Assembly (NCBI GenBank): GCA_963691705.1
Contig: OY829542.1
Location: 3,950,188-4,014,187 of the forward strand
Length of the DNA: 64,000 bases
Direction of reading: 5' to 3'
Origin: Viola odorata
Taxonomy: Eukaryota; Streptophyta; Magnoliopsida; Malpighiales; Violaceae
The position numbers and the translations under genes are program-made. Below the pieces are notes generated by a model. That model saw only the letters and a program-made list of their open reading frames with translations, had not been told where the DNA came from and made no database searches. Positions 911 through 61,338 of the stretch are shown in pieces; position 1 is the first letter of the stretch; each line of letters begins with the position of its first letter.

Positions 911-2397
911 TGATTACATTGCATTTCATCATGTTTTTACTATCCATTTACTTGTTATTTGGGCAGTAAACCTACTGATTTATCCTTGTATTTTCCATAT
1001 CTTAGCAGTTCTGGTCTGGAGGCAATTTATAGAAGAATATGACTTGTGGAGCGTTGAAGATATTTTCCCGAGTCTTGGCCTAGCGCTTGGCCAAGACTCC
1101 GGCCAAGACTGATCCGCGAAAGAGGAATTTCGAGCAGCAACTTTGGCAACCACTTGGGCCGCTTTCCACTTGGGCCTTGCGAGCTGGCAGCTGTCCAGTG
1201 ACAAAGAGAAGGATCAAGAAGATATTTATTTAAGAATCCTATCAAGGATCTCCTTCCATCTTTGTATATTTTAAATTCCTATTTTTATTCAAAACAAATC
1301 ATGATAATTTATTTAGGAGATTAATTAGGAGATTATTTAGGAGATTGAGTTGAAGAAGGACAGGAAAGTTTGAGCTTACTTAGGGCTGAACTCGTTCTCC
1401 TCTCCCTCTCTCTCTTCTTCTCCTCTCTTCCGCCACTTTACACTATTGCTCCGGATTTAATTCTTTGAATCTCGGATTTAATTTATTTATGCAATTAAAT
1501 ATTTTTATTATTCATTCATGAGTATGAGTAGCTAAACACTTGTTCTTGGTAAGGGTTGATGAGCTTAGTTCTTATGCATTCGTGAGATCAAACCATGCTT
1601 AATAATCTCTTTATTCGTATTCATTTATTTCTTAAGCTTATTTAGTCGCTTACTCACTAGAGACAAGAGTTGGCCATTCTTGTACCCTAGTAGAGAAGAG
1701 TTGCAACCAGCCTAGAAGGAAAGAGAGCACCCGTCGGCTAGGCGAAGTAGGTGACTAGTCTCGCGCCAGACTAGAAGAAATAAGTGATCTAGGTCAAGAC
1801 CAGATTGACAACCTAGGGTTTCCATAGGGAGACACCTGGGTCTAGGTACTGCCTTCCCCTATACCATTGAGGAAGCGAACAGCCATTCAAGACAGCAGTC
1901 AAACGGATAAACCCTTTAACCAGCAAGGTGTCCCTTGGCTAGGATTATCAGGAAAGGGAGCACCCGCCAGGTAATTTGAAGAGGAGGGAAGACAGGAGTG
2001 AACAGGAGTACCTCCACTCTATAGTAGTACTATGAACGAAGAGATGAATACCCTTGAGTCTATGATCAAAGCATAAGAATAGAAGCTCTCATATCACCCT
2101 TACCTGGAATTCCCTTTTACTTGATTTATTTCAATTTTGACCCCTGTCTAGGCCAAGGCTTTGGCCAATACTGTTTTGTGCTGTTTTATTTCTTTCTGTT
2201 TTTGTCTTTATTTTCAGATTCAACCAACCAAATTCAGTGACGAGGAAGTCAACCAAGAACTACATTTCCTAGAGGTCTTTGTGGATCGACCCTCTTACCA
2301 CAATCTACAAACCCTTGTAGACAGTGATAAGTTGTATTTCTACCCCCTTTTCCATACCTATTTCACTCTTATATTTGACGTGTTCGACGCGCGATCA
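911..2397 (+). repeat. Element A 5' LTR
   Basis: 1487 bases, TG...CA, matching 6583-8058. It contains the dispersed TTGGCCAAGAC motif at 1071-1112 and 2146-2170 and a CT-rich stretch near 1398-1435. The short ORFs inside on both strands are repeated in the other LTR and are not genes. Confidence 0.93.
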
Positions 2398-2402
2398 AAT
2401 TT

Positions 2403-2419
2403 TGGCGCCGTTGCCGGGC
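2403..2419 (+). other. Element A primer binding site (tRNA-Asp type)
   Basis: TGGCGCCGTTGCCGGGC follows the 5' LTR by five bases and matches the tRNA-Asp complement except at its last base. Confidence 0.88.
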
Positions 2420-2478
2420 ATCTCTAACGGTATTTGTAGTTTTTGTTTTTTTTTGTTTTTTTTTATTTTTGATAGTTG

Positions 2479-5271
2479 ATGACCAGGTCCTCTTGCAGAG
2501 AAGAAGATTTGCTACCATATAATCCGAATCTCACTAAGGCCGAAGCACAACTCTGGAAAATAGCTCAGAAAAGGAAAAACCCAGAAGAAAGTGAATCGGA
2601 AACCTCTAGTTCCGAAACAGATTTTAGTCTAGACCACAGTCTTGGCCAAGACTCCGGCCAAGACGATTTCTTTGACCCAGCTATGGCAGGAAATCGGCAA
2701 GAACCCACGATGAGGGAACTGAACAAGACGGCGGAGCAGGAAACCTTCTCCTGTATCGCTTTGCCGACAGTGGCAAATGACTGGTCTATCAAGACCAATA
2801 TAGTGGCCAACCTTCCTAAATTTTTTGGCCATTCGAATGAAAACCCATTCAAGCATCTGCGAAACCTACACGTTCAATGTGACATGATGAAACCAGCTGC
2901 TGTGAATATGGAAAGAGCAAAGTTGAAAGCTTTTCCATGCTCTCTTGAGGGGGCTGCCCAAAATTGGTTCTACAGCCTGCCTCACAACACGGTCAACACA
3001 TGGGCCGAGATGTCCACTTTGTTCCTCAACAAGTACTGGAATGCAACAAAAGCAGGGGTAGCTAGAAAGAACATGGATGTCATCCAGCAAAGGAACAATG
3101 AGGGTCTAAGTGAGTATCATCAACGGTTCAGAGAGTTGCAAGAAGTATGCCCTACACACGGAGTTGCGGATCAGACAATGATCCAGTACTTTTATGACGG
3201 GATGCTTCCAGCCACCCAAGAAAAAATTGATTCAGCCGCTGGTGGAGCATTGCAAGACTTGACAGTTACAAGAGCCAAGATGCTACTTCAGACCATGGCA
3301 GACAATTGCCAGAATAATATCACTTCAGACAGAAATTCTATTCATATTCCTTCAAGTCTTAATGTTATTTCTGTCGAACAAAAGCTTAATGACTTAACTG
3401 ATATGGTCAAAAATCTTTCTGTTAACATTTCAGGTGCAATGCCCACAGGAATTCAGAATCAAAAGCAGGTAGCTTCCGTGTGTGGGATATGTCAGCAGTA
3501 GGATCATCAAACCAACAATTGTTATATGGTGCAACACCCTCCGGATGATGTGACTCAGGTTAACGCAGCATACACACACAACCAAGGGAGCATGCAGAAC
3601 TACCCTCAGGGAAGTAACGAGTACTCATGGAGAGGCCACCCAAACTTCAGATGGAGCGATCCAGTCCCTCCACAACAGAATCTAGGCCAAGCCTCTGGCC
3701 AAGCTCCTGTAGCCCAGCTACCGCCTATCCCTCAACCTTTACAGATTACTGGTCCATCTATAGAAGACACTCTTAAAAGTTTTATGCAGGTAACCCAAAC
3801 TGGTTTGGTAGAGATGCAGAAGAATTTTATGCAGTCACAGATAGAGATGCAGAAGAATTTTATGCAATCACAGGCAGAGATGCAGAAGCAAATCAATCAG
3901 ATGGCTAACCAAGGCAGATTACCTTCTACCACCGTGGACAACCCCCGACACAATGTTAGTGTCATGAGTCTAAGGAGTGGAAGTGTGTTACCAGAGAGGA
4001 AAGGTGCGAAAACAGATGAGGAACTAAGAAAAATTCAGTTGGAAGAGGAGGATGAAGATGAGGAAGAAAATGAATCAAAACCAGTCTTGGCCAAACCTCA
4101 GGCCAATACTGAAGTTATCAAGGAAACAGCGGGGACAGAACCTGTCTTGGCCAAGACGCATGCCAAGACGCATGCCAAGCCTGACCAGCCAGAGGAAATC
4201 ATAGAAATTCCTCCACCATTTCCTCCTAGATCCTGAAAAGAGAAAAAGCAAGATGAAGCAAGGGACATTATGAACTTTTTTGGAAAGATAGCTGTTAATA
4301 TACCTATGTTAGACTTAATTGCCAAAGTTCCCTCTTATGCTAAATTGCTTAAAGAATTTTGCACTAACAAAAAGAAAGTTGCAGGTATAGAGAGAGTGCA
4401 TTTAGCTCATAGTGTCTCTGCAGTGCAGCAACTTCCAGAGAAGTGCAAGGATCAGGGAACTTTCACCATTCCATGCCGAATAGGAAACAAGACGATTGAG
4501 AAAGCCCTTTGTGATTTAGGGGCTGGCATCAATGTGATGTCTTTGAGCGAGTTCGAGACCCTGAAGATAGGAACGATGAAGGAAACTGACTTGGTGATTC
4601 AGCTGGCTGACAGATTGTTCATCCGACCCAAGGGAGTCGTGACAGATGTCTTGGTAATGGTAAATGATTTTATATATCCAGTGGACTTTTACATTGTTGA
4701 AATGAATGTTCAATTGCCTTCTTGCACCACTGACATCTTATTAGGAAGACCATTTCTAAGGACATCGAAGGCTAAGATTGACTGCTATGAAGGGAGTATA
4801 ATCCTAGAATTCTTTGGAATGACTATGAAATTCAGCATTACCGAAGCATTGCAGCATCCTGATGATTTACATTGTGTGAATTTTCTTGATGTTTTAGATC
4901 CAATTATTGATAAAATGGTTGATATTTATGATCCCTTTGAGTGTGTGCTGAATAGAGGAACAAAGATTCTAGTAGGATTGGAGGACAGAACAGGAGATCA
5001 GAAGGAACTCCAAGAAATTTCGACCAGTTTGGCAGATCCAGAAAAAACAGATGCAATCTTGGCCTAGAGCTTGGCCAAGACGCGGGCCAAGACGCGAGCC
5101 AAGACGCGGGCCAAGACTGCAAAAGTGAAAGGGAAAATAGGACAACAGAATTATGAGCTGGAACAACCCCCTGATCCATTCAAACGTATACCTTTAGGGG
5201 TTGTCAAGGGAATGTCACGCAAAGGTCCTGACAAACTTAGCGCATGGGGGGAATTTAGAGGAGTTTCTTGA
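2479..5271 (+). pseudogene. Element A gag-protease frame with three in-frame stops
   Basis: One reading frame runs from the ATG at 2479 to a stop at 5269-5271, broken by TAG at 3499, TGA at 4234 and TAG at 5065. Gag core: about 2750-3270. A CCHC zinc knuckle (CGIC, then H and C) spans the first stop near 3480-3520. A 42-base unit coding EMQKNFMQSQ is repeated near 3811-3890. An aspartic protease with the catalytic DLGAGINV motif lies near 4516-4540. The tail (5065-5120) is an array of LAKT/RAKT codons made from the dispersed GGCCAAGAC motif, and the TAG at 5065 falls inside that array. Without readthrough only the N-terminal Gag is made. Confidence 0.85.
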
Positions 5272-5320
5272 TAAGAAATCCATGGCAGTGTCGAGCCCAA
5301 GACAATAAATAAGGGCGCTA

Positions 5321-5338
5321 CATGGGAGGCAACCCATG
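5321..5338 (+). other. Post-pol hairpin (element A)
   Basis: CATGGG and CCCATG stems around the loop AGGCAA. The hairpin and about ten flanking bases are the same at 13023-13040 in B, although the coding DNA upstream is deleted in A. Confidence 0.7.
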
Positions 5339-5574
5339 CTTCTTTTATTATTTCTTTTCATTTGATTTATTTTTCATTTATTCTTGTTCTGTTTGAGTTC
5401 GCTGGGTTGTTTTGGTTGCTCGCAGGAACTAAGTGTGGGGACGTTGCTGCGGCTTGCCCTAGCGCTTGGCCAAACATCAGGCCAAGACCCTCCCGCTCCA
5501 GCAGCTTGACCAGCTTCTGCCTCCATGTCGTTTCTTTCTTTTCTTTTTATTTTTTGTCTTTTATTTGTCTCTCC

Positions 5575-5594
5575 ACACAATGAGGACATTGTGT
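5575..5594 (+). other. Hairpin before PPT-like copy 2 (element A)
   Basis: Stem ACACAATG pairs with CATTGTGT around loop AGGA. Five bases later comes AAGTGTGGGGAGGG (5600-5613). Matched by 15526-15545 in B and 55026-55043 in E. Confidence 0.75.
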
Positions 5595-6544
5595 CTTTTA
5601 AGTGTGGGGAGGGTATTTTAATCTCTTGATTAAATTTTTGTTTTGTGTTTGTTGTTAATATTGATTGATTTGTGTGATTTTGAGTCAATTTTTTGCGTTT
5701 TAAAATTTTTCTTTTTACATCAGTTTGTCCAGTTTTGAGTTGGATGTTTGCATGATTTTTTGATCTTCTTTTTATGCTTGTTTGAGTCTGTTTTGATTGA
5801 GTGTACACCGCCCCCCCTAGATTTCAACTTAGGTTGTTTAGTTTACCACTGAAATTGCAAGTAGACACTTGTCTAGGCGAAACAATGCTTTAGTAACAGG
5901 GAAGCGAACGAGCGTAACTTGATCAATGCTTAAGGGGAATATTATCTAATGTTACCCAAACAAACTCTATCCACATGGTCTAAAGGACGTCTAGCTTAAA
6001 TCTTAACGAGCATTAGGGTGTCGAGTCTTGCTGCGTCTGATTTGAGTGTGCTGTTCTATCTGGTTGAGTGTGAGACACAAAAAGGTGCTGGAATGTCATA
6101 GCAGAATATAGCAAAGGTGGAAGTTCTGGATGCCCAAAAAGAAAAAGCTGTGTCTATATTTGATGCCTGTAAAAATGCAAAAGGCACGCGATATGTCTGT
6201 AAAAATACAAGGGCATAGAAAAAAAAAAGAGAAATCTGCTGAAAATGATTTAAATGGCACTAGTCTTTAGGCACCATTGGATAGAATAGCACTCGGTGGG
6301 ACTCAAATCTGTGGTAAGTTTAGACCCCTACACATTATAAATTCAATTCTTGCAGGATGTCTTGATACCATTTGAATGAGGTTTGTTTAGGGTATTGATT
6401 TGTCCTTGTTAGTCTAGCATTGGGTTGCTTAGGGAAGTGTCTTGGTGAATTCAGTGGTGAGGTGAACAACTGAAAGGAGAACTCTAGGGGTCATGGTGTC
6501 TGTTTTGTTGTGTTTTTATTTTTATTTTTGAGTCTTTGAGTATG

Positions 6545-6564
6545 TATGCTTGGGGGCAAGCATA
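6545..6564 (+). other. Hairpin before the 3' polypurine tract (element A)
   Basis: Stem TATGCTTG pairs with CAAGCATA around loop GGGG. Four bases later comes AAGTGTGGGGA (6569), ending at the LTR at 6583. Matched by 16580-16597 in B and 53513-53532 in E. Confidence 0.78.
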
Positions 6565-6582
6565 GTTTAAGTGTGGGGAATT

Positions 6583-8058
6583 TGATTACATTGCATTTCA
6601 TCATGTTTTTACTATCCATTTACTTGTTATTTGGGCAGTAAACCTACTGATTTATCCTTGTATTTCCCATATCTTAGCAGTTCTGGTCTGGAGGCAATTT
6701 ATAGAAGAATATGACTTGTGGAGCGCTGAAGCTGTTTTCCCGAGTCTTGGCCTAGCGCTTGGCCAAGACTCCGGCCAAGACTGATCCGCGAAAGAGGAAT
6801 TTCGAGCAGCAACTTTGGCAACCACTTGGGCCGCTTTCCACTTGGGCCTTGCGAGCTGGCAGCTGTCCAGTGACAAAGAGAAGGATCAAGAAGATATTTA
6901 TTTAAGAATCCTATCAAGGATCTCCTTCCATCTTTGTATATTTTAAATTCCTATTTTTATTCAAAACAAATCAGGATAATTTATTTAGGAGATTAATTAG
7001 GAGATTATTTAGGAGATTGAGTTGAAGAAGGACAGGAAAGTTTGAGCTTACTTAGGGCTGAACTCGTTCTCCTCTCCCTCTCTCTCTTCTTCTCCTCTCT
7101 TCCGCCACTTTACACTATTGCTCCGGATTTAATTCTTTGAATCTCGGATTTAATTTATTTATGCAATTAAATATTTTTATTATTCATTCATGAGTATGAG
7201 TAGCTAAACACTTGTTCTTGGTAAGGGTTGATGAGCTTAGTTCTTATGCATTCGTGAGATCAAACCATGCTTAATAATCTCTTTATTCGTATTCATTTAT
7301 TTCTTAAGCTTATTTAGTCGCTTACTCACTAGAGACAAGAGTTGGCCCTAGTAGAGAAGAGTTGCAACCAGCCTAGAAGGAAAGGGAGCACCCGTCGGCT
7401 AGGCGAAGTAGGTGACTAGTCTCGCGCCAGACTAGAAGAAATAAGTGATCTAGGTCAAGACCAGATTGACAACCTAGGGTTTCCATAGGGAGACACCTTG
7501 GCCTAGGTACTGTCTTCCCCTATACCATTGAGGAAGCGAACAGCCATTCAAGACAGCAGTCAAATGGATAAACCCTTTAACCAGCAAGGTGTCCCTTGGC
7601 TAGGATTATCAGGAAAGGGAGCACCCGCTAGGTAATTTGAAGAGGAGGGAAGACAGGAGTGAACAGGAGTACCTCCACTCTATAGCAGTACTATGAACGA
7701 AGAGATGAATACCCTTGAGTCTATGATCGAAGCATAAGAACAGAGGCTCTCATATCACCCTTACCTGGAATTCCCTTTTACTTGATTTATTTCAATCTTG
7801 ACCCCTGTCTAGGCCAAGCCTTTGGCCAATACTGTTTTGTGCTATTTTATTTCTTTCTATTTTTGTCTTTATTTTGAGATTCAACCAACCAAATTCAGTG
7901 ACGAGGAAGTCAACCAAGAACTACATTTCCTAGAGGTCTTTGTGGATCGACCCTCTTACCACAATCTACAAACCCTTGTAGACAGTGATAAGTTGTATTT
8001 CTACCCCCTTTTCCATACCTATTTCACTCTTATATTTGACGTGTTCGACGCACGATCA
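6583..8058 (+). repeat. Element A 3' LTR
   Basis: 1476 bases, TG...CA. Compared with 911-2397 it lacks 11 bases near 7347 and shows about 22 substitutions by eye. It is followed by AAGAG at 8059-8063. Confidence 0.93.
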
Positions 8059-8063
8059 AAGAG

Positions 8064-11000
8064 CAAAACTACTTCTCCAAACAATGGCTGACAACAGCCA
8101 AAACAACACCTCATCCGAGAGAAATTCTACACCTTCTTCTTTGAATGCTATAAATATGGAGAACAAACTTGATAAAATTACTGACATCTTGATGAATCTC
8201 TCTACAGGTACCCAATCTCAGGCACAAACTACAGTAGCAGCAGCCAATCCCATGCCCTCGGTTTGCGGGATTTGCCAACAGCTAGATCATCCGACCCATA
8301 GTTGTTATGTGGTAGAACAACCGGGCGATCCAGCCCCAATCCCAGTGAATGCCGTGTACGGCTACAATCAAGGACAATCTAATGGACAACCTAGATTCCC
8401 ACACGAGAGCAACCAATACTTATGGAGACAACATCCCAATCTAAGGTGGAGACAAGATACACCTCAGCCTAGCCAACCAAATCTCCAACAATACCAAACT
8501 CAGCCTAGCCAACCATCTCAACAACAATAGCAAACTCAGCCTAGCCAACCATCTCAACACCAATACCAACAATAGCCACAACGATCTCCCATAAATTTCC
8601 AACACTTCGTACCCAGACTACCAGGAGCAAACCAATCCAATGCCCCTGTCCCACTTCCTACACCTCAACCGCTTAAGATTACCGGAGTACCTATCGAGGA
8701 CACTATGCAAAAATTCATGCAAGCAACTCAATCCAGCCTTGTTGAAATGCAAAAGCAAATAGGTCAGCTCACCCAGCAGATCCAACAAGTAGGAACAGGT
8801 GGAAAATTACCCTCCACCACCGAGGATAACCTAAAGCACAATGTAAGCGCCATCCATCTAAGGAGTGGAAGTGTTCTACCAGAACGAAAGGGTGCGAAAT
8901 CGGATCAAGAGATTCACAACCAATCGTACGAAGACGAGGATGTGGACGTAGATGAGGAAGTACAAGAAGAAATCCAAGCAGAAGTTCAGTCGAAGCCAAT
9001 CTTGGCTAAGACTGGAACTCAGAGTGAAGCCGAGCTTGATATTCCAGTTCAAAAGGAACAGCCGACCTTAGCTAAGACTGAGGCCAAAGCTGATGAGCAG
9101 GTCATGAAACCTCTGGAAACAGCAGATATCCCGCCTCCCTACCCTCCCAAGTCCTCTAAACAGAAGAAATTAGACGAGGCTAAGGACTTCATGAACATTT
9201 TTGGCAAAGTGGCAGTGAATATTCCTATGCTAGACTTAATTTCAAAAGTACCTTCTTACTTTTGCAGAATGTTTTTGAAAGAACTCTGTACTAACAAAAG
9301 GAAACTTGCAGGTATTGAGAGAGTGAATCTTTTGCAGAATGTTTCTTCAGTACTTCAAAGCAAACTGCCGGAGAAATGTGGAGATCAAGGAACCTTCACC
9401 ATCCCTTGCAAAATTGGGAATAAAACGGTGGAAAAGGCTCTTTGCGATTTAGGGGCTGGGATCAACGTGATGTCTTTAAGGGAATATGAAGCATTGCAAA
9501 TGGGGCCCATGAAGGAGACACAGGTGGTGATTCAACTAGCTGACCGAACCGTGATCCATCCTAAGGGCTTGGTAGAGGACATTCTCGTCCAAGTCAATAA
9601 CTTTATATACCCTGTGGACTTTTATATTGTTGAAATGGATGCTGATTTACCTTCCTGCACCACTGATGTGCTTTTAGGTAGACCTTTCCTTAGGTCTGCT
9701 AAAGCAAAGATAGACGTTTATCAAGGTAGTATTATTTTGGAATTCTTTGGAAGCACGATTAAGTTCTACATGAAGGAGGGATTAAATTATCATAATGAGA
9801 CACATAGTGTAAATTTTATTGATATCTTATACCCTATTGAGGAAGAAACTGCAGATTTAAATGCTATTGACCCACTTGATTTTATCTTAAGCAGGAGTAT
9901 CTCAGCTAAGACGCTGGAAGAAATGGGAGACCGAGTAGGGAACCGAGAGGATCTTAGGGAGGTCTTAACGGATTTCCATGAGACTGAACCAGTAAAGGAA
10001 ACCACACCTTGTCCATTGTTTAGCATGTCTAACTCTGAGATGTTACCATCTATTGTGCAGCCACCCGAGCTGGATCTTAAGGAGTTACCAGAACACCTCA
10101 AGTATGCCTATCTAGGCCAAGACAAAACTCTCCCAGTGATAATCTCAGCTAAGCTTTCTAGCGAAGAAGAGACAAGATTGACAAGCGTTTTGAAGGAACA
10201 TAAAGAGGCCATTTGATGGACCTTAGCAGACATCAAGGGCATATCCTCAACCATTTGTACCCACAAAATTCATGTGGAAGAGGATAAGAAAACTATTAGA
10301 CAACCTCAAAGGAGGCTTAACCCTCCGATGATGAAGGTTGTCAAGAAAGAAATCATTAAATTACTTGATGCTGGAATTATATACCCAATCTCTGATAGTT
10401 CGTGGGTTTCCCCTGTGCAGGTTGTACCAAAAAAGACAGGTACCACCGTGACCGAAGGTGAGGATGGAATAAAGAGAACCACAAGAATTCAGAATGGATG
10501 GAGAGTCTGTATAGACTACCGCAGACTTAACCAAGTCACAAGGAAAGACCACTTTCCATTACCATTCATCGACCAAATGGTGGAAAGATTGACTGGGAAG
10601 TCCCATTACTGTTTCTTGGACGGTTATTTGGGATTTCATCAAATCCCAGTGGCATTAGAAGACCAAGAGAAGACGACATTTACATGTCCCTTCGGAACTT
10701 TTGCATATAGGAGGATGCCATTTGGATTGTGCAATGCGCCGGCCACCTTTCAAAGATGTATGGTTAGTATCTTTTCAGACTATGTGGAAAAGGGTATTGA
10801 AGTGTTTATGGATGACTTCACCGTCTATGGTGATGATTTTGATAAATGCTTAATGACACTGAAACATATTTTAAAAAGGTGTATGGCTACTGATCTTGTT
10901 CTTAACTATGAAAAATGTCATTTCATGGTTGAACAAGGTATTGTCTTAGGTCATGTAGTTTCTAAGAAAGGTATAAAAGTTGACCAGGCTAAGATTGATG

Positions 11001-12980
11001 TTATCAAAACCTTGCCTTACCCCTCATGCGTGCGTGAGGTTAGGAGTTTTTTGGGTCATGGGTGGTTTTATCGCATGTTTATCAAAGATTTCTCGAAGAT
11101 AGCGGAACCAATGTGCAAAACCAATGTGCAAACTCTTGCAAAAAGAAGTGGACTTCGATTTCGACAAGTCTTGCCAAGAAGCGTTCGACAAGATCAAGGA
11201 GAAACTCATATCATCCCCAATCATCCAAGCCCCAGATTGGAACCTACCATTCGAATTAATGTGTGATGCTAGTAACTCAGCTGTTGGTGCGGTTCTAGGA
11301 CAGAGTAATGGTAGAGATCCACACGTAATCTACTACGCCTCTAAGATGCTCGACGATGCGCAAAAGAACTATACTACAACGGAGAAGGAATTGTTCGCAA
11401 TAATCTTCGCTTTGGACAAATTCAGATCGTACTTGATGGGAACAAAAGTCATAGTTTTTTCTGACCATGCAGCCTTAAGGTATCTCTTGACAAAAGCCGA
11501 ATCTAAGCCAAGACTGATCCGCTGGGTTTTACTTTTGCAGGAACATAATTTGGAGATTAAGGACAAAACAGGAAAGAAGAACTTAGTTGCAGACCACCTC
11601 AGTAGATGTTTTGTCAAGGACGATTCAGAACCAATCAAGGATGATTTTCCAGACGAACATCTATTTGTCGTCAAGATAATCAGACCATGGTTTGCCGACC
11701 TAGTTAATTTCCTAGCCACGGGTAAACACCATGGAGACCTAACGGCACAAGAGAAGGTTAAGATCAAGCATGACAGTAAGTTTTTCGTTTGGGATGATCC
11801 ATATCTTTGGAAAATCGGATCTGATCAGTTGATTAGAAGATGCATTCCTGAAACTGAAATTCCATCGGTCTTAAGATTTTGTCATTCTTATGCATGTGGT
11901 GGACATTTTGGAGCCAAGAGGACAGCCTTAAAAGTCCTAGAATCATGATTTTATTGGCCCACCCTATTCCATGATAGTTATATGTTTTGTAAGACATGTC
12001 CTGCATGCCAAAAGATAGGAAACATAAGCGCTAGAAATCAAATGCCCATGAATGTTATATTAAATTGTGAAATTTTTGATCTATGGGGCATTGATTTCAT
12101 GGGGCCATTTCCTATGTCAGACGGAAAACAATATATACTGCTTGCTGTGGATTATGTGTCTAAATGGATAGAAGCTAAGGCAACTAGGACCAATGATGCT
12201 AGAACTGTTGTTTCATTCTTGAAAACTAACATTTTGAACAGATTTGGCGTGCCTAGGGGGATCATTAGCGACCGAGGCACACATTTTTGCAATAGTATTA
12301 TTGTTTCCCTTTTCAGGAAGTATGGAGTAACCCACAAAGTCTCCACTGCATACTACCCTCAGTCAAATGGCCAAGCGGAGGTGTCAAACAGAGAAGTCAA
12401 ATCGATCTTAGCTAAGACTGTTGGCTTAGATCGACTAGATTGGAGCCAAAGGTTAGATGATGCACTATGGGCGTATAGGACAGCCTACAAATCCCCCATA
12501 GGAATGACTCCTTACAAACTGGTGTACGGAAAAGCTTGTCACCTACCAGTAGGTATGCAACACAGAGCTTATTGGGCAATTCGAAAATGCAATCTAAGGT
12601 ACGACCAAGCAGGTGAGGAAAGGAAACTCCAAATCCACAAAATAGAAGAGTTAAGGAATCAAGCATACGACAACCAGCTCTTAGCCAAGATCAGGATGAA
12701 AACATACCATGACAGTAAGATTGTTGAGAAGAATCTCCAACTTGGGGGAAAAGTCCTTCTGTACAATTCACGATTTAAGCTCTTCCCAGGTAAGCTCAAA
12801 ACTAAATGGGAAGGTCCATATGTTATCACTAATATCTACCCTCATGGTGTAGTGGATATTAAGAATGAAAAGACAGGGATTGAATTCAAGGTCAATGGAC
12901 AGCGACTAAAACCATTCCTAGAAGGATTTCCTACGTTTCAGGAAAATCAGGCGATTGAAGCCCCACCTGAGATTCATTAA
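8064..12980 (+). pseudogene. Element B gag (3' part), protease, RT, RNase H and integrase, multiply broken
   Basis: It continues the gag frame from 910. Seen in order: CCHC knuckle near 8264-8305; a Gln-rich spacer with TAG at 8528 and 8573; aspartic protease with DLGAGINV near 9440; TGA at 10214; reverse transcriptase with YRRLN near 10518 and the catalytic FMDD near 10808; RNase H near 11260-11600; integrase zinc domain near 11880-12010; and integrase core with D, D and E in WGIDFMG (12087), SDRGTHF (12268) and QAEVSNRE (12373). A 13-bp tandem duplication (11106-11131) shifts the frame between RT and RNase H. TGA at 11946 splits the integrase zinc domain. These breaks make the polyprotein inactive. 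Confidence 0.9.
11106..11131 (+). repeat. 13-bp tandem duplication inside pol
   Basis: AACCAATGTGCAA occurs twice in a row (11106-11118 and 11119-11131). Thirteen is not a multiple of three, so the reading frame changes here; RNase H continues in the frame seen from 11124. Confidence 0.9.
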
Positions 12981-13516
12981 AAGAACAGCAAAGTCATGCC
13001 TAGGACTATAACTATGGCGCTACATGGGAGGCAACCCATGCTTTTTAATTTAGTTATCTCGAATAAACTTATCGTTCAAATTTTGCCAGTTCCACTGATT
13101 AATTTTCCTTTGCTGAATTTTTCAGGGAGTTTAGGAAAGAGAAGAAAATAATTTCCAGGAGTGATTTTGAGGATCTAAGTGTGGTGAGGACTATATTTGA
13201 TCTCAGCCACATTTTATTCAGCCTTCGGCTGATGGACGCGCGTAGATAAAGAAGGAAAAGAAAGGAAGCGTGTTCTAGGGAGGAGAATAAGGAAGAGATA
13301 ACGGTCACATTTTTGTAATTATTAATCATGATTTGGAAATTAATTTTCAAATCTTAATTAATAATTACCTACCAAGTTTCAGTCTCCTTACCTCCCACAA
13401 ACACAAAATCCCTAAAATTTCGCCCTCTCTCTCTAATCTTCCACGATCACCTCAGCTAAAATCTCTCCACTCTTCCACTCTCCTACTTCAAACCCACGAT
13501 TATTCAGCATTAAAAC
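12981..13516 (+). other. Element B spacer between pol and ORF3
   Basis: Noncoding. It holds the post-pol hairpin at 13023-13040 and the first AAGTGTGGTGAGGA copy at 13177-13190. A CT-rich leader (about 13420-13480) precedes the ORF3 ATG. Confidence 0.7.
13023..13040 (+). other. Post-pol hairpin (element B)
   Basis: CATGGG/CCCATG stem with loop AGGCAA, 43 bases after the pol stop. Same sequence and context as 5321-5338 in A. Confidence 0.7.
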
Positions 13517-15448
13517 ATGGGAAAATCAAAGCGATCATCTGCCAAGAAAGCAAAATCCACCCCAATTAGGCAAGAATCTCCTACCACTCCGCAGTCTCCT
13601 TCTCTAACGAATCCAGAGGAGGATTTGCCACAAAACCTCAACGAAGCGCTAGATATCGCAAGGACAATCATGTCCATGGAAGCAGCCGCCTCTGATTCTT
13701 CGAAGCAACTTCTCTCTACTCCTACTTCAGTCCCCGAGCCCAAGACCCAGTCTAGGGTTAGCAAGACGGCTGGCTCCGAGGTTCAAGAGATTTTGGATTC
13801 CGAGCCCAAGTGTGAAGAAGGGTCGGCCAAATCAAAGAAATCAGGGAAAAGAAAGGCAAGCCTGAATGTTGAATCTGCCCCAGCCAAGAGGACGCGATCT
13901 ACGGCTGCCAAGGGCAAGAAGAAAGTAGATGAGGGTAATCTTGGCTTAGACTCTGATGCTGATGCGGTTGCAGTCTTGGCCAAGCCTGCGGCCAAGACTG
14001 CCAAGGTAATCACCCTTCCGTCCTTGAACTCTTTGAAAGGCTGTTTAAGGCCTGATACTCCTGATTTTAGGGCTAAGTTGACTGAAAAGCATGCCTGTGA
14101 GATAACTCAGTTTGCTATCCTTGATTTTTCCTTTCTTGACGAGTTGGGGATAGGAAATAGAATTAGGCGGTTTATTTCTAATCTTGGGTGGGATTGCTTC
14201 TTCTATCTATGCATGCCTGCTTATGCTGAATTATGTTTAGAGTTTCATTCCTCTTTCTGGTTAGATACGGAGAGATTGTATGCTAATGGTAGGGCTTTTC
14301 CTGATCTGAGTGCTGCTGATGTTGTGCATTTTCGTTTACTTGATAAGTGGTGCCACTTTTCAATTGATGATTTTAATTTGCTGCTTGGTTTTGTGACTGA
14401 GGATGGCCTCAAATCTGATGAATATGTGAATGCCCTGACTGATTATCCCCCAGATTGGGATAAGGCAACGACCTATGGAGAATTGATTGGTGACCATGCG
14501 GCCAAACTAAATAAAAATTCTAAGGCTCACCAGATCCGAGATCCTACTTTGAGGATTCTCCAAAGGATCCTTTCAATCAATCTCTCGGCCAAGACCACAG
14601 TCTCGGGTAATATTTCAAAACTTGAGACATTTTTGCTTTGGTGCATGCTGCATGAGAAAAGAGTTAATCTTGGCTATTGGATTGCTAGGCAAATAAAAGC
14701 ATGTGATTCTCTTCCTAGAATGATTTTAGGAACTCTGATTTCCCATTTGACTGTTACTGCTAGGGGTATAGATCTATCTGCTTTCAATTTGTTTAAATCC
14801 TGTGCCATTAAGATCATGGATCTTAGGGCTTTTGACCAAATGGGTCATGTCCACGAGGAAAAAGGCTATCCCTGTTTTAATACAAGATTCACCCCAGTAG
14901 CAGATCACCTCTATGGGAAGAGGATCAACGGGAACTTTAAGATTAAGCCAATTCAGATTGAAGGTGCAGCAGAGGAGCCCAATCTGGGCCAAGATGACTA
15001 GATGCCTGAGCATACTAATAGCCTCGGCGTTGATCCTGACCACCCTGGACTTCCAGCATGGGCCAAAAAAATCCTTGAGCTTGTGCAGATCCAGCTCAAT
15101 GCCTTCACAACAAATCAGAAGCTGTTCTACGACTTCCAAGACTCATCTCGCAAACAGATGCAGCAGATTGTGGATCAACAACAATCTCTGTTTGCAAGTA
15201 TTGAGTTGGCACAGAAGGAGCGGCTGGACAAGTTCATGGAGCAGCAGGATGCCAAGTATAAACACATCCAGGCGCACTTAGAAGGTTCTTTTACCTACAT
15301 CAGAGCCATAGACAGAGTTGTTGCGCACATTCGCAACAAAGTGAACGACCACTTCAGCACCACGAGTGACTCCAGTGCCGCCTCTGATGAAGAAGAAGAA
15401 CCACCTTCTGTGCAAGATCTGAAGCCTCCACCTTCCACATCTCAGTGA
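13517..15448 (+). pseudogene. Element B third ORF (Athila ORF / env-like position), one in-frame stop
   Basis: The ATG at 13517 opens a 494-residue frame ending in TAG at 14999. The same frame resumes at once at 15002 and runs to 15446-15448, so this is one ORF of about 643 codons with a single stop. The N-terminus (about residues 1-165) is basic and Ser/Lys-rich with AKK, AKRTRS and KGKKK runs. The middle (about 185-490) resembles the plant transposon domain of Athila ORF proteins. The part after the stop is Gln-rich and likely coiled coil (15130-15290), with an acidic tail. The position matches the env-like ORF of Athila. No signal peptide or clear membrane segment is seen, so an envelope role is unsupported. 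The GGCCAAGAC motif occurs in frame at 13975-14005. Confidence 0.75.
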
Positions 15449-15525
15449 TTACCCCCAGGTCGTGTCTTTCTTTCTTTCTTTTTCAAATTTTTGTGTCTTT
15501 TTTATTTCTTTTTCTCCTCTCATTT

Positions 15526-15545
15526 ACACATTGAGGACAATGTGT
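15526..15545 (+). other. Hairpin before PPT-like copy 2 (element B)
   Basis: Stem ACACATTG pairs with CAATGTGT around loop AGGA. Relative to A (ACACAATG/CATTGTGT) one base pair is flipped on both arms, a compensatory change. Confidence 0.75.
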
Positions 15546-16099
15546 TCTCTAAGTGTGGTGAGGGGGTTTTTAGGAAGTCTGTCTGTATATACATGTTTCT
15601 GAAGTATTTTTGGTGTGATTTCTTTGATCGCATGAAATTTTTTATTTTTTTTGTGAATCTAGGCTAAGTTAGTTGGCCTAGATTGTCTAAAACAGGGTCC
15701 GATGCATGTTTTCTCTTGGTCAATATGTGTGTTTTTTAGGATTGTGTGTTCTCTGTTTTGTTTGTGTGTCAGCAAATTTCCTGAAGAATGCCTAAGGCCT
15801 GTTTTCTCGAGTATCTTAACCTTGACCTTTAGCATCCTTCGCCTTGTGACCCCATAACTTATGAACACAGCGTGATCAGCCTAGAGACATCCTTATTGTA
15901 CATGATCATAGGGTCTAGCATTGCGTAACTGACTTGACACATAGGCAAACTTCCACCAAAAATACCTAATACCCCCTTGAGGAAAATTGCTAGTGGACAA
16001 TGGAGTCTAATGCCTTGTAATTATGCTGAATTGCTCTAATATAGAGAACTACTACTATGCCTATTAAATTGCAGCTCTAGAAAAAAAAATATGAATAAA

Positions 16100-16245
16100 A
16101 CGTCTTGGTATTTCTGCCTCACCAAGTGGAAATCATCAAGAAACTTTTAGCAGAGCAAAGAAAAATAAATATACAAGCAAATGTCTTGATGTTTCTGCCT
16201 CACTAAGCATTAACAATAAAGAAACTTTTAGCAATTTTGGGCATA
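16100..16245 (+). repeat. Degenerate tandem duplication of about 80 bases
   Basis: The segment starting GTCTTGGTATTTCTGCCTCA near 16102 recurs from about 16183 as GTCTTGATGTTTCTGCCTCA. Both copies are followed by AGAAACTTTTAGCA. It lies in element B 3' noncoding DNA; no function seen. Confidence 0.6.
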
Positions 16246-16579
16246 GTAAAATAAAACTTCAGGCAAGATAATTACATGATGATATTGAGCAATTGAATTA
16301 AAGGGGGAAAATCCAAGTAGGTGGATGTTTTGCTTTGTTGAGTCAGTTGTGGAATGCGAAGGTGTTATGGTCATGTGGAATTCGGATGTCTAGGGTGCTG
16401 ATTAGGATGTATTCATAAGGGTTGGGATCCATTGAGAAGTATGCTAATTGTCATAGGCCAAAAATATTAAAGGAAATGGGCTAAGAGTAGTCTGTCCAGG
16501 AAATTTTGCCACTGTTTGTTTGCTCTGTTTTGAGTCTGTTTTGAGTCTTCCCTTTTTTTGTCTTAGTTAAGAGTCTAGT

Positions 16580-16597
16580 ATGCTTGGGGGCAAGCAT
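16580..16597 (+). other. Hairpin before the 3' polypurine tract (element B)
   Basis: Stem ATGCTTG pairs with CAAGCAT around loop GGGG, five bases before AAGTGTGGTGAGG, which abuts the 3' LTR. Confidence 0.75.
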
Positions 16598-16617
16598 TGT
16601 TTAAGTGTGGTGAGGTT

Positions 16618-18083: not shown

Positions 18084-18883
18084 TACTTACAAAAGATTGA
18101 ATGACTGTGATGGTCAAGTAGAGTTACCTAGGAGAAGAGTTAGCTTTGCGGTGTTGACCGACGAGAAAATAAACTTGACTCCCACTCCGATTGCATGAAG
18201 ATTGGTAATTGCCCAAAATGAGCGTGAAGGGGAGATTTGTTGTGGGTCCTGCTCAATTTGGGCTCATATGTAATTATTTATTTTAGTTTAATTAGAAAAA
18301 GAAAAAGAAAAAAGAAAGAAAGTGCCGTGCTGGATTAGAATTGGTTTCCAAACCCAAATCTAATGGGCCCACATATTTATATATATGGATGGTACCCAAA
18401 TCTAATGGGTCCACATATTTATATATATGGATGGTGGCACAGAGAAGAGGCAGAAGACAAGAAGATTAGTTTGGTTGAACGGAACAAATAAAGGCGAACA
18501 TCACAAGCTTTGATCGGACGGTGATTTGTGGGTCGATCTTGGCGAGATTATAAAGGGTTGTTTCTTACTTCGAGCTCTTCAAGGTGAACGGTGTTGATCG
18601 TTCATTAGGTTGGTATTATGTCTTTTGTTTTCTCAGATTGATTGATTAGATTGTTTGATTGGTACTATTGGTAATAGAGATGTATATCAAATAATTCTTA
18701 GAGTTGAGAAAGGAGTTTTTCGATCATACACATTGATCATCATATAGTGAATTGTTACTGGCTTAGTTCCGTGATTTTTTACCTGTTGAGGTTTTTTACG
18801 TTAAAAATCTCTACATTCTTTTCTTGATTGCTTTTGATTCATTTGATAACTAGGGGTTATTGATTTTTGGGATAAAATTATTA
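18084..18883 (+). mobile_element. Truncated Ty1/copia 3' end, copy 1 (LTR from 18238)
   Basis: Matches 28828-29662 closely. Bases 18084-18237 are the end of the copia interior, including a purine-rich AAGGGGAGAT tract. From 18238 the LTR starts TGTTGTGGG. The LTR is cut at about 18883, some 36 bases short of its end, exactly where the duplicated P450 block begins. A 40-base unit (ACCCAAATCTAATGGG... to TATATGGATGGT) is present twice here near 18345-18435 and three times at 29085-29215. Confidence 0.82.
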
Positions 18884-19033
18884 GATGATGCTAGGAAGAT
18901 TGTGATCTCTATGTTGCTGCAGCGATAAAGGTTTACTCTCTCGCCAAGTTATGTCCACTCCCCTGTTTTCCTTTTCTCAATCCAACCAAAACATGGACTT
19001 CAAGTCATTCTCCACCGACTCTAAGACCAAACA
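18884..19033 (+). pseudogene. P450 pseudogene fragment, exon 3 sliver joined to 3' end of exon 5 (copy 1)
   Basis: Part of the duplicated block. It codes in one frame for a C-terminal P450 tail like that of the intact genes (LLQRYRFTLSPSYVHSPV with a stop at RYR, since CGATACAGG reads CGATAAAGG here), ending at TCTAAG near 19023. The copy at 36676 keeps more of exon 3. Confidence 0.8.
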
Positions 19034-19524
19034 TTTGCTATTCAAGATCGTTGTAGACAAATTGTACCAGAAATAAATCGTTGGGTGCTCAATCCAAGAC
19101 TTCAATGGTGAGTTTAATGATCGGAAAAATCATTGGTGGTGGTTATAAACATATGTTCCACAATTTATATAATCCGTTTCCCGATAGAAAGATGCCTTTC
19201 GAAAAAGAATCTAATTCCAACCTTAAAAGGACAAAAACTAGTCAGGGATCGCTTATGTGGCACATAACTAAGTCCAACTCCGAAGGGAGAAGCTGCAATT
19301 TAATTTGAATGAAAATCATATTTTCTCCATAAAAGAAAGAAGAAACAAGTTTTTCAGCACATCGATTATATACAACTGCTGTATTTCTTTCTTGTCCGTC
19401 TATATTTTAAATTACTCCGTCATAAAAAGAAAGAAGAAACAGCTAAACCGAACCTAAATATTCTTGCGCCTAAACAACAAACTGAAAACTTTAAAAACAC
19501 CTTTATATCAACGCAACCCAGTTT

Positions 19525-19536
19525 CCATATATAGCC
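19525..19536 (+). promoter_or_regulatory. Possible TATA box of P450-1
   Basis: CCATATATAGCC lies about 50 bases before the ATG at 19581. The same sequence is at 37355-37366 before P450-4. Spacing allows a short 5' UTR; no other support. Confidence 0.35.
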
Positions 19537-19580
19537 AACTGCTATTGCCACGTAAATGCTAATTAGCAATCACAAAGGAA

Positions 19581-21638: not shown

Positions 21639-22029
21639 ATCAAATATTGCTATCAAATTTCCCTAAGTGGTTTTGTTTGTGGTTCAAACATTGTAACTAC
21701 TCTACAAGAAAACAAATTGTTGGGTGTTCAATTCAATTCCAAGATTTCAATAATGCTGGGTAAAACCGCACATCTTTTCTTTTAATTTTGTACATAACTC
21801 CACCTCCATTCATGTGAATTCCTAAAAGTATACACATTTGCAAAGTTTATGAAGTCAATACGAAAAAGAAGAGGAGGTATTGGAACCTGCAGTCTACCAC
21901 TTTCTATATTTTATCTTTGCTTCTCGAAGACGATGGAAAAGAAATTGGCCAAGTACAGGTAAATCATGGAGTATTATAAATAGTGGAACTTTTAAAACCA
22001 GCAGCGACAAAAAAAATCAGCTAACCTCG

Positions 22030-22330
22030 ATGGCGTGGCTTGACTGGATTATAATAGCCAGGAGGTTGCTCCATGTAATCAGATTCGTGGAGTTCACCAT
22101 TCATAACTGTTGAAGTTGCCTATGGAGTATAACTTACTGTCAACCCAGCCGTCAGAGCGGCGCTTCACGCGATATACCCATTTGCAACCGATAACATTGA
22201 GACGCTACGCTGTTCACAAGGCTAACTTGGTACGGGTGGGCCCAACTTGAGGAAGAAATTATTTTTTAATTACCGATAACATTGAGACGCTACGTTGTTC
22301 ACAAGGCTAACTTAGTACAGGTGGGCCCAA
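22030..22330 (-). pseudogene. Degenerate Ty1/copia reverse transcriptase fragment
   Basis: The minus strand codes for pieces typical of copia RT, with GELHES and YMEQPPGYYNP, then KWVYRVKRRSDG further upstream. Frame is not kept between pieces. The same remnant lies after P450-3 (35785-36070) and P450-4 (39850-40060) and again at 23125-23385, so it was already present when the cluster duplicated. Confidence 0.75.
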
Positions 22331-22401: not shown

Positions 22402-22498
22402 TTCAGTTTGGAGAAGTATTGTCGTTTTGGAGAAGCAAGGAGAAAGAAGGCAAATAGAAGAAGTATAGAAAGTGGTGTAGACTGCAGGTTCTGATAGC
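22402..22498. repeat. Inverted copy of 24043-24151
   Basis: Reads as the reverse complement of 24043-24151, from the tract ending in CAAATACAATAAC back to GCTATCAGAACCTGCAG. It joins the next LTR fragment at the shared bases TGATAGC. Confidence 0.8.
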
Positions 22499-23104: not shown

Positions 23105-23107
23105 AAT

Positions 23108-27281: not shown

Positions 27282-27284
27282 ATT

Positions 27285-53494: not shown

Positions 53495-53512
53495 AATATC
53501 CCCACACTGCCC

Positions 53513-53532
53513 AATGCTCGCCCTCGAGCATT
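53513..53532 (-). other. Hairpin before the 3' polypurine tract (element E)
   Basis: On the minus strand AATGCTCG pairs with CGAGCATT around AGGG, four bases before AGTGTGGGGATATT and the LTR. Against A (TATGCTTG/CAAGCATA) base pairs change on both arms. Confidence 0.78.
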
Positions 53533-55025
53533 CACAAAATTTGAAACAGTCCCCAAGACAGAACAAACACACCAAACCATAGCACAGAGAATAAACATGC
53601 TTTTCCACATTCGGGACCTCGAATAAAACAAACTCTACCTAGATACACCTGCATCAAATCAGAAGGATAACGACCCTTAAGACGAGACTTTTCCACATCA
53701 GCCTATTAACCAGTAGTCCTCACATGAATAAGTGTTTGCACTCACACTCGTGGGCTAGGTGTTTAAACACTCAAAATGCAGAAAACGCAGCACGAAACCA
53801 AGTTTGCACATCAATCCGAGTACATTAGACACATGCATAGGCAATCTAGCAATCAAAAGACTTCGCATCGAGGGTAAGAAGGGAAGACAAGGAAAGGAAA
53901 TGATAAGATGGAACACAATGAGAAGAAAAAATGGATAAGAGGGAGAGAAAGGAGTTGAAATGAGAAGGTAGTTAAACCAACTCAAACCTGGAATGCTCCC
54001 TTGGCAAGAAAGAAACGAAATGGTGAGACAATGTTGCTGGAGCGAAAGCTAGACTAGGCTCTTCTTCTTCGAGGGGGATCCTTACTTTCTTCATTCGGGA
54101 CCTTGAATGGATGCTGGCTGCTGATTTTCCTCTTCTCTATGAAATTTGGTCTCTTCTTTCTCTCTTTTATTTATATTTCTGTTTTTCTATTTTTTTTCAT
54201 TTTTTTTTCTTTTTTACAAGAGAGAGAGAGATCTGAATTGAGGATTGAGACCTTGTTCTTCGGGGCTGGATATTCTGATTTCACTTCCCCACACTTGTGT
54301 TTTGCTGTGGATGGGAAGTGAATTTTTTTTTTCTGGTTTGCCCTTGAATTCGTTATTTTGACTTCGAGGTCTTGAATATGTACCAACATTCGGGGCCTTA
54401 AATCTGCGGGATCCCCTCACTTCGCTTTTGCTGCTTCATTTGTCTAGTCTAGCCCTCGATGGTACTCCCAACAACACTGCTCACCTGCCAAGAGAAAAAT
54501 CAAAGAAAATTCAAATGGTTAGAATGGAGGGGAAAAGAGGGGATTCGGGGGCTCGAATGAAACAGAACAGAAAAAATAGAGAGAACAATTTGATGCGAAG
54601 ACTAAATCTTTTTGCTGCTTTCCTATGTCTAATCATGTTTATACTCATGGATATCATGCAAGCTCAGCCAGCACCTAGTCATGCATTCACTCCAGCAATA
54701 AATATAGTCATGAAGGCTCAAAATGCTCACAAGGTGTAATTTAGTGACTACTGGTTTCAAGGCCTTGAAGCAGATATAAGGCATAACAGGCATACAAGGA
54801 ATCATTCGGGACCTTGAATACAGACAGCATTTTCATTCTATGTGCACAAGTCATGTGTGTGTGTTCATCATTGGGATTAAAACTGGGCAGCATGAAAAGA
54901 TAAAAATCCGAGAATAAAAATAAAAGCAAAGCATGAAAATAAAATAAATAAAGTCGAACACAAAATAAAAATAAAAAACTGAATAATAAAACAAAGCAAC
55001 TAAAAACCTCCCCACACTTAGGCTA

Positions 55026-55043
55026 CACATTGCCCTCAATGTG
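55026..55043 (-). other. Hairpin before PPT-like copy 2 (element E)
   Basis: On the minus strand CACATTG pairs with CAATGTG around AGGG, five bases before TAAGTGTGGGGAGG. Confidence 0.76.
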
Positions 55044-55737
55044 AGAAGGAAGCAGAGGTAGGTGGAGAAGGTGGTGGCTGGGCAGAGTAGATGAATGAGA
55101 AGTGGTAGGTTGGTTTAGTTCTAGGATGTTGCGTGCCATGAGGAAGAAAGAGAGAGATGGAATTAATTTTTGGGGAAAGGAATTAATTAATTTGATGAAG
55201 ATGGAAGTTGAAAGGAGAGAGGTTGAGTGGGATGGCAGTAGGTGGCGTGCGTGAGTGGGAGTAATGGTGGATAATGGAAACATGGAATGATGGAGAGAAA
55301 AGGGGAATTTATTTTATTATTTTTGAATTTTGAATTTTTTTTTTTTTTTATTCTCTCCGCCACGTGGCACGCTGTGAGTAGTTGGAAGAACCCAAGATTC
55401 CCACGCCTGCACACCTGCTGAAAAGAGGGAAAAAGGCAATTAATTCTAGAAATTAAAAAGATTAAAAAGGAATAAAACCAAAATGAATTAATTGGGAGAA
55501 TAAAAAGGAGGGGACAAGAAATTTAAATAAGAGGGAAAGAGAAAAAAGCAATTTAAAAATGCACCTAGGTAATGTAAAAAGCTGGAAATGTAATATAAAA
55601 AGTTGAGTGGACTAGGAATTTGAAATCTGAAAGGAATTAAATAAAGCAAAGGAGAGAGAAAAGGGTCCTGGGAAACCGTGGGTTTCCCCACACTTGGCCT
55701 TGAATTAATGTCTAGGCCTAGACAACACTTCTGGATT

Positions 55738-61335: not shown

Positions 61336-61338
61336 ATT

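What the first reader, a model, noticed from the sequence alone, without database searches (positions are those of the whole stretch)
5430..16617. Conserved hairpin plus PPT-like module, three per element, in A, B and E
Each element has three copies of AAGTGTGG(G/T)GA: A at 5431, 5600, 6569; B at 13177, 15551, 16603; E on the minus strand at 55697, 55020, 53508. Only the last abuts the LTR and is needed as the plus-strand primer. In all three elements copies 2 and 3, and only these, follow a perfect 7-8 bp hairpin with a purine tetraloop (AGGA, AGGG or GGGG) by 4-5 bases. Stems differ but stay paired: ACACAATG/CATTGTGT in A against ACACATTG/CAATGTGT in B; TATGCTTG/CAAGCATA in A against AATGCTCG/CGAGCATT in E. 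That covariation argues for a selected RNA (or cruciform) structure. In B, copies 1 and 2 bracket the third ORF. It may mark extra plus-strand initiation sites, like the central PPT of lentiviruses, or a processing signal for an ORF3 transcript. The role is inference.
Basis: partly seen in the sequence, partly recalled or inferred. Interest (0 to 1): 0.87.

Follow-up and report, generated by a model that had tools for sequence, protein, structure and literature searches.

The report
Folded RNA beside retrotransposon primer sites
In a large group of virus-like jumping elements of one plant genome, short signals that resemble the primer for second-strand DNA synthesis sit next to, or inside, conserved RNA folds, which may help the copying enzyme cut at the right spot.

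Summary
In elements A, B and E the six hairpins exist, 3-6 nt before an AAGTGTGG-type motif. The window's own plant genome holds 11,498 AAGTGTGGKGA places against 636 for the reversed pattern, and 5,995 apex-plus-motif places against 1. "Three per element" is not general. Stems covary between families. At the LTR, the hairpin's outer base lies 18 or 19 nt from the LTR in 50 of 56 contexts. This stem also covaries and excludes the short hairpin. An extra polypurine tract in Athila4/Calypso is already reported (PMC2829016, passages); the structures look new. Best reading: a structured polypurine-tract array whose hairpin stalls reverse transcriptase so that RNase H cuts at the tract's end. That mechanism is inference. 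The ORF3-transcript idea is disfavoured: a family with no ORF3 match, and E, keep both hairpin modules.

The parts
5431..5441 (+). A, motif copy 1 (no adjacent hairpin)
5575..5594 (+). A, short hairpin S1 (8 bp, loop AGGA) before motif copy 2
5568..5612 (+). A, long stem S2: 5568-5578 pairs with 5602-5612 (holds motif copy 2), inner helix 5582-5588/5592-5598; excludes S1
   Evidence: -24.5 kcal/mol, z -5.3
5600..5610 (+). A, motif copy 2
6545..6564 (+). A, terminal hairpin hp3 (8 bp, loop GGGG)
6569..6579 (+). A, terminal motif = polypurine-tract position; 3' LTR starts at 6583, 18 nt from the stem
13177..13187 (+). B, motif copy 1 (no adjacent hairpin)
13514..15001 (+). B, ORF3 (495 aa), weak Transposase_32 and ATHILA ORF-1 matches, homologues in 7 of 20 fetched loci
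15526..15545 (+). B, short hairpin S1 (8 bp, loop AGGA) before motif copy 2
15516..15565 (+). B, long stem S2: 15516-15524 and 15526-15529 pair with 15553-15565 (holds motif copy 2)
   Evidence: -24.7 kcal/mol, z -5.3
15551..15561 (+). B, motif copy 2
16580..16597 (+). B, terminal hairpin hp3 (7 bp, loop GGGG)
16603..16613 (+). B, terminal motif; LTR TG at 16618
55685..55695 (-). E, motif copy 1 (no adjacent hairpin)
55026..55043 (-). E, short hairpin S1 (7 bp, loop AGGG) before motif copy 2
55007..55049 (-). E, long stem S2: 55049-55038 pairs with 55018-55007 (holds motif copy 2)
   Evidence: -23.1 kcal/mol, z -3.8
55009..55019 (-). E, motif copy 2
54286..54296 (-). E, extra exact motif copy between copies 2 and 3; forms the 3' arm of another predicted stem
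53513..53532 (-). E, terminal hairpin hp3 (8 bp, loop AGGG)
53499..53509 (-). E, terminal motif variant CAGTGTGGGGA; LTR starts at 53494

Best explanation
A structured polypurine-tract (PPT) array shared by many Athila-type (Ty3/gypsy) families of this plant genome. SHOWN: the terminal PPT-like motif follows a conserved hairpin (hp3) whose outer base lies 18-19 nt from the LTR in most contexts. About 0.9-1.55 kb upstream lies a second copy with the same hairpin apex and nearly fixed spacing (S1). SUPPORTED by computation: at that copy a longer, mutually exclusive stem (S2) pairs an upstream pyrimidine tract plus the S1 5' arm with the motif itself, on the RNA sense strand. INFERRED: while minus-strand DNA is made, reverse transcriptase (RT) runs into hp3 just after copying the PPT and pauses; its RNase H, about 18 nt behind, cuts at the PPT/LTR junction and sets the plus-strand primer's 3' end. 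At copy 2, S2 hides the motif in the genomic RNA; once RT has copied the motif strand, the freed 5' arm snaps into S1 ahead of RT and gives the same pause, making an internal plus-strand start or a strand-transfer site.
For: Abundance: 5,995 apex-plus-motif places against 1 control. Unselected motif sample: 49 of 100 with hairpin against 1.9% of shuffles. Downstream of copy-2 places, hp3 was seen in 15 of 19 one-kb stretches. Covariation: hp3 score 0.256 and 0.271, 0 of 500 shuffles; S1 0.259, 0 of 500, plus a further A-U to U-A pair in the L139 family; S2 0.326, 0 of 500, and RNAalifold picks S2. S2 is the minimum-energy fold in 41 of 41 and more stable in sense than antisense in 28 of 28. 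Flank-swap test 0 of 10,000. Motif accessibility at copy 2 is 0.16 against 0.28 with shuffled flanks. Distance 18 or 19 nt in 50 of 56; HIV-1 RNase H cuts 18 nt from the polymerase site, also 17 (PMC5766924, passages). Families lacking an ORF3 match keep both modules.
Against: No biochemical data. Ty3, an enzyme of the same superfamily, is quoted at about 13 bp between the two active sites (PMC5371799, passages), so the 18-nt match may be a coincidence. Constant spacing can also come from shared descent. Shuffle controls do not allow for relatedness; the number of pairs changed on both sides is not above shuffles. In the 23-sequence group S1 has one such pair and a +2 slide scores as high (0.122 against 0.109). 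The S2 flank-swap result comes from one group (0 of 20,000); the other group gives 2,787 of 20,000, and flank-only tests are not significant. Folding puts hp3 in the minimum-energy structure in 17 of 24 representatives only, and the terminal motif is not more accessible than shuffled.
Confidence: 0.42

Rival explanations
1. The modules are RNA-level signals unrelated to plus-strand priming: a binding site for Gag or a host protein (packaging, dimer formation, export, stability), built from the PPT-like word and its folds in the 3' non-coding region.
For: S2 is a sense-strand RNA structure that would exist before reverse transcription. Copy 2 lies downstream of the last recognisable reading frame whether that is pol or ORF3. 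E-type families carry further motif copies in the same region.
Against: The motif is the same word that serves as PPT at the LTR, and the hairpin-to-motif spacing is kept at both places. The loops are purine-only, so loop-loop kissing with themselves is not possible. No 8-mer complementary to the motif occurs in the sense strand of A, B or E.
Confidence: 0.28
2. Only the terminal hairpin works; copy 2 is an old duplicate of the PPT region kept by descent, and S2 is a by-product of a pyrimidine tract facing a purine-rich word.
For: S1 and hp3 share the apex and loop type. Flank-only swap tests are not significant. Pyrimidine and purine tracts pair easily through G-U.
Against: S2 changes on both sides in 22 cells against 10.3 +/- 3.4 in shuffles, and the score is above every shuffle and every slide. 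Shuffling the upstream 20 nt weakens the fold by more than 1 sd in 34 of 41. The copy-2 module persists in families whose flanks no longer align.
Confidence: 0.15
3. Pause sites that raise template switching between the two packaged RNAs, so that the 3' non-coding region and ORF3 are shuffled between families.
For: Inference: RT pausing at hairpins is known to favour strand transfer (general knowledge, not looked up). Copies 1 and 2 bracket ORF3 in B. Recombination among distant Athila elements is stated in the abstract of PMC2410132 (search listing).
Against: No recombination breakpoints were tested here.
Confidence: 0.08
4. One reading: a processing signal for an ORF3 transcript.
For: In B, copies 1 and 2 bracket ORF3. 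In the A family copy 1 follows a TGCAG|G stretch that resembles a 3' splice site (the resemblance is recalled).
Against: L040/L046 and E show no ORF3 match yet keep both hairpin modules. Five loci with integrase in view (L040, L043, L046, L048, L050) show no copy 1.
Confidence: 0.04

Closest known systems
Extra PPT in the linkers of Athila4 and Calypso (Wright and Voytas 2002, as cited in PMC2829016; the 2002 paper is not held)
   Same: A second copy of the PPT word between the last gene and the 3' LTR in elements of the same lineage.
   Different: The passages seen mention no hairpin at those copies; here both copies carry a conserved hairpin, and the internal one a mutually exclusive long stem.
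Sirevirus (Ty1/copia) multiple PPTs with an inverted repeat at the terminal PPT (PMC2829016, passages)
   Same: Several PPT copies near the 3' LTR; structure at the terminal PPT; the authors propose a role in RNase H recognition.
   Different: There the PPT itself is part of the stem and the repeat reaches into the LTR, and the upstream PPTs lack the repeat. Here the terminal hairpin lies wholly upstream of the PPT, and the internal copy has its own folds.
Central PPT of lentiviruses and PPT2 of Ty1
   Same: Possible second plus-strand start inside the element.
   Different: No plus-strand start has been shown here; the copy is non-coding and near the 3' end. Ty3 has no identified central PPT (PMC5371799, passages).
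Ty3 PPT in genomic RNA (PMC11381356, passages)
   Same: A PPT that is base-paired in genomic RNA.
   Different: Reported there as low-probability pairing; no hairpin at fixed distance is mentioned in the passages seen.

Membership tests
Athila lineage of Ty3/gypsy LTR retrotransposons | Ty3/gypsy order of pol domains (PR-RT-RH-INT) | tested here: met
   E: gag, RT, RNase H, integrase in that order in one frame; B: RT, RNase H, integrase in successive frames. A lacks RT and integrase matches.
Athila lineage of Ty3/gypsy LTR retrotransposons | Placement by RT phylogeny in the Athila clade | not tested
   No tree was built; reference sequences of the clade were not at hand.
Athila lineage of Ty3/gypsy LTR retrotransposons | Extra ORF of the ATHILA ORF-1 type (PF03078) | tested here: inconclusive
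   B ORF3: PF03078 at 16.2 bits, below its cut-off of 20.2; Transposase_32 at 25.4, below 45.
Athila lineage of Ty3/gypsy LTR retrotransposons | Typical primer binding site next to the 5' LTR | tested here: inconclusive
   TGGCGCCGTTGCCGGG follows the 5' LTRs of A (2403) and E (61335, minus); that it fits Athila and tRNA-Asp is recalled.
Extra-PPT elements (Athila4/Calypso type) | Additional copy of the terminal PPT word between the last gene and the 3' LTR | tested here: met
Sirevirus-type structured PPT | PPT lies in the stem of an inverted repeat that reaches into the 3' LTR | not tested
   A repeat shared with the LTR was not searched for; the terminal hairpin found lies upstream of the PPT.
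Functional central PPT | Plus-strand DNA starts at the internal copy | not testable with these tools
   Needs cDNA end mapping.
Conserved RNA structure | Compensatory changes above shuffled and slid controls | tested here: met
   hp3 and S2: covariation score above every shuffle and every slide; S1 likewise on 17 sequences but not above the +2 slide on the 23-sequence group.

The most novel reading that the evidence does not exclude
Copy 2 is a bistable RNA element whose two exclusive folds (S2 burying the PPT word, S1 freeing it) are exchanged by the reverse transcriptase itself as it copies the motif strand, so that the fresh hairpin becomes a self-set stop that times RNase H cutting and makes an internal plus-strand origin. 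That would be a co-replicational RNA switch in a retroelement.
Probability: 0.2. Interest if true: 0.85.

Novelty: new variant of a known kind. Interest (0 to 1): 0.62.

Why it matters
How reverse transcriptases pick one exact plus-strand primer end is usually put down to the sequence of the PPT hybrid. A covarying hairpin at a near-fixed 18-19 nt from the LTR, kept across many families whose flanks no longer align, would add a template-structure signal that can be tested with short RNAs in vitro. The internal copy with two exclusive folds gives the long-noted extra PPT of this lineage a concrete, testable role. The modules also give a sharp mark for finding 3' ends of these elements in plant genomes.

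Tried and rejected
Led nowhere: IMG/VR and GTDB contigs held no match to the hairpin-motif patterns, and the RT alignment found no related viral contig. The ORF3 protein search found no homologue at E <= 0.001 among the 8,000 candidates scored. Rfam at gathering thresholds gave nothing in the window. The search for the AAGTTTGGGGG variant at LTRs did not complete (last try), so other PPT words remain untested. No other plant genome could be searched.

Considered and rejected or weakened: a cruciform as main form (G-U pairs; sense strand favoured 28 of 28); loop-loop kissing (purine-only loops); long-range pairing of the motif (no complementary 8-mer in A, B or E); a general rule that internal copies are hidden while the terminal one is exposed. 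On the last: copy 2 is less accessible than shuffled flanks give (26 of 28 below their own shuffled mean), but the terminal copy is not more accessible (0.26 against 0.31, 24 representatives), and 15 other internal copies are mixed (0.29 against 0.35).

Rows dropped before counts: from the LTR-junction set of 43 five rows were left out of the pair count (L111, L069, L099 and L014 at 108, judged not LTR junctions; L046 with a 3-nt loop), and L112 was added. The rows had passed a filter of at least 5 Watson-Crick pairs, and part of them came, whose pattern fixes six pairs. The 16 rows, 86 were chosen by hand: 13 of the 24 hp3 representatives plus the three window elements; the 11 left out were near-duplicates (7) and decayed copies (4). 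The 23 rows are one register group chosen by hand; families whose 5' arm starts ACAC, and L009, were left out.
Full report
WHAT IS THERE. It contains Ty3/gypsy elements of Athila type. A (LTRs 911-2399 and 6583-8060, 97.9% alike over the aligned stretch) has gag and a weak protease match but lacks RT and integrase matches. B lacks a recognised 5' LTR and has RT, RNase H, integrase, ORF3 (13514-15001) and a 3' LTR from 16618. E (minus strand, LTRs 51515-53494 and 61338-63321, 99.2% alike) has one open gag-pol frame. A TGGCGCCGTTGCCGGG stretch follows the 5' LTRs of A and E; its link to tRNA-Asp and to Athila is recalled.

THE MOTIF AND THE HAIRPINS. Genome-wide, AAGTGTGGKGA occurs 11,498 times against 636 for the reversed pattern, and TTGRGGRCAA followed after 6-12 nt by AGTKTGG 5,995 times against 1. 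The first 100 listed motif places were read without regard to hairpins: 49 have a tetraloop hairpin of at least 7 bp ending 2-9 nt upstream, against 191 of 10,000 shuffles. These 100 all come from the first 10 Mb of one contig and hold repeated families. Going the other way, 19 one-kb stretches downstream of copy-2 places were read; a recognisable hp3 with motif and LTR start, some of them decayed, was seen in 15 and none in 4.

ARCHITECTURE. The recurring pair is: copy 2 with its hairpin downstream of the last recognisable gene, then 0.90-1.55 kb of linker (20 loci with both), then hp3, motif and 3' LTR. Copy 1 is not general: in L039-L046 no copy was found in the roughly 3 kb upstream, and in five loci with integrase in view (L040, L043, L046, L048, L050) there is none. 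E-type families have more copies, several without the hairpin. ORF3 of B has tblastn homologues (34-67% identity) in 7 of 20 five-kb loci. L040 and L046 have integrase followed after about 320 nt by copy 2 and no ORF3 match, and E has none either. So the hairpin modules do not depend on ORF3.

COVARIATION OF THE SHORT HAIRPINS. hp3: 18 distinct hairpins, 91.0% of cells paired, covariation score 0.256 against 0.137 +/- 0.023 (0 of 500 shuffles; slid controls at most 0.109), with changes on both sides at pairs 1, 2 and 7. A second set of 16 modules gives 96.1% and 0.271 against 0.098 +/- 0.023 (0 of 500). Copy-2 hairpin S1: 17 distinct, 92.6%, 0.259 against 0.112 +/- 0.023 (0 of 500), with double changes at pairs 1, 3 and 6. 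A family read later adds A-U to U-A at pair 5, fully paired in 3 of 5 loci (L139, L141, L143). Against: the number of pairs with double changes is not above shuffles. Shuffles ignore relatedness, and most double changes probably stand for one event per clade. In the 23-sequence group S1 has a single double-changed pair, and a +2 slide scores 0.122 against 0.109.

THE LONG STEM AT COPY 2. Folding of the window's copy 2 gave, in A, B and E, not the short hairpin but a stem of -23 to -25 kcal/mol that holds the motif (z -5.3, -5.3, -3.8). In 41 of 41 copy-2 representatives (less than 70% flank identity) the short hairpin has no pair in the minimum-energy fold; 7-10 of the 11 motif bases pair with upstream sequence; energies are -15.7 to -31.1 against -2.1 to -10.4 for the short hairpin alone. 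Shuffling the upstream 20 nt makes the fold worse by more than one sd in 34 of 41. On 23 sequences of one register group S2 has 92.9% paired cells (shuffled 89.4 +/- 0.8), 22 cells changed on both sides (10.3 +/- 3.4) and score 0.326 (0.252 +/- 0.014), each 0 of 500; slid versions reach at most 67.1% and 0.222. RNAalifold on the same alignment chose S2. Swapping upstream flanks between 28 families weakens pairing from -19.4 to -17.4 kcal/mol on average (0 of 10,000 permutations). Split by register, the effect is in one group (16 families, 0 of 20,000) and not in the other (12 families with like flanks, 2,787 of 20,000); flank-only tests are not significant. The sense strand is more stable in 28 of 28 families (mean -23.9 against -14.2; mean z -3.9 against -2.3), as G-U pairs predict for an RNA. 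The motif at copy 2 is less accessible than with shuffled flanks (0.16 against 0.28; 26 of 28 below their own mean). S1 and S2 share the 5' arm, so they exclude each other.

THE TERMINAL COPY. hp3 is in the minimum-energy fold in 17 of 24 representatives, and the upstream flank adds nothing (mean z 0.1). In 56 distinct contexts with at least 5 Watson-Crick pairs, the distance from the outer stem base to the LTR's TG is 18 nt in 32, 19 in 18, 17 in 3, 20 in 2 and 16 in 1. Gap and tail vary (4+3, 4+4, 3+4 and others) while the sum stays near 18, which hints at constraint on the total. HIV-1 RT cuts RNA 18 nt, and also 17 nt, from its polymerase site (PMC5766924, passages). Ty3 RT is quoted at about 13 bp (PMC5371799, passages), so the match is suggestive only.

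OTHER COPIES. In the A family copy 1 lies in a 14-16 bp predicted stem (L066, L067, L082, L108; z -4.6 to -5.6) just after a TGCAG|G stretch. B copy 1, E copy 1 and E's extra copy also fold with z about -3 to -4, A's own copy 1 does not (-0.7). Over 15 such copies accessibility is mixed.

HOW IT MAY WORK. Shown: abundance, spacing and architecture. Supported by computation: hp3, S1 and S2. Inferred: the pause of RT at hp3, RNase H cutting at the PPT end, the exchange of S2 for S1 once RT has copied the motif strand, and an internal plus-strand start. The odds on the mechanism (0.42) are lower than my trust that the folds are under selection (about 0.85 for hp3, 0.75 for S2, 0.65 for S1 at copy 2).

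KNOWN OR NEW. Passages of PMC2829016 state that Athila4 and Calypso have one extra PPT in the linker, and describe multiple PPTs and an inverted repeat at the terminal PPT in Sireviruses. T-rich boxes upstream of PPTs are known (PMC10085805, passages). No paper of the held library holds 'Athila', 'polypurine tract' and 'hairpin' together. The searches listed none whose title or abstract start reports such folds in Athila. Most subscription papers are missing from that library, and Wright and Voytas 2002 and Havecker 2004 are not held. I therefore file it as a new variant of a known kind.

Noticed in passing
18880-22330 and 36710-40146: Direct duplication of about 3.45 kb at 99.3% identity, among several related copies; the related copy at 34167-34979 matches cytochrome P450.
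   Followed up: no
911-8060: Element A keeps gag, a weak protease match and both hairpin modules but lacks RT, integrase and ORF3 matches.
   Followed up: partly
L012, minus strand 126, 184 and 243: Three CAGTGTGGGGA copies within about 120 nt, upstream of copy 2 of an E-type family.
   Followed up: no
L066, L067, L082, L108 (161 nt each): A-family copy 1 follows a 3'-splice-site-like TGCAG|G and lies in a 14-16 bp predicted stem.
   Followed up: partly
22498-27891 and 24687-26200: Inverted LTR-like pieces and minus-strand fragments related to A's LTR and to E's gag region; the LTR-like edge at 26200 has no hairpin module.
   Followed up: no
51074-51515: Truncated piece like the start of B's 3' LTR, directly next to E's 3' LTR edge.
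   Followed up: no
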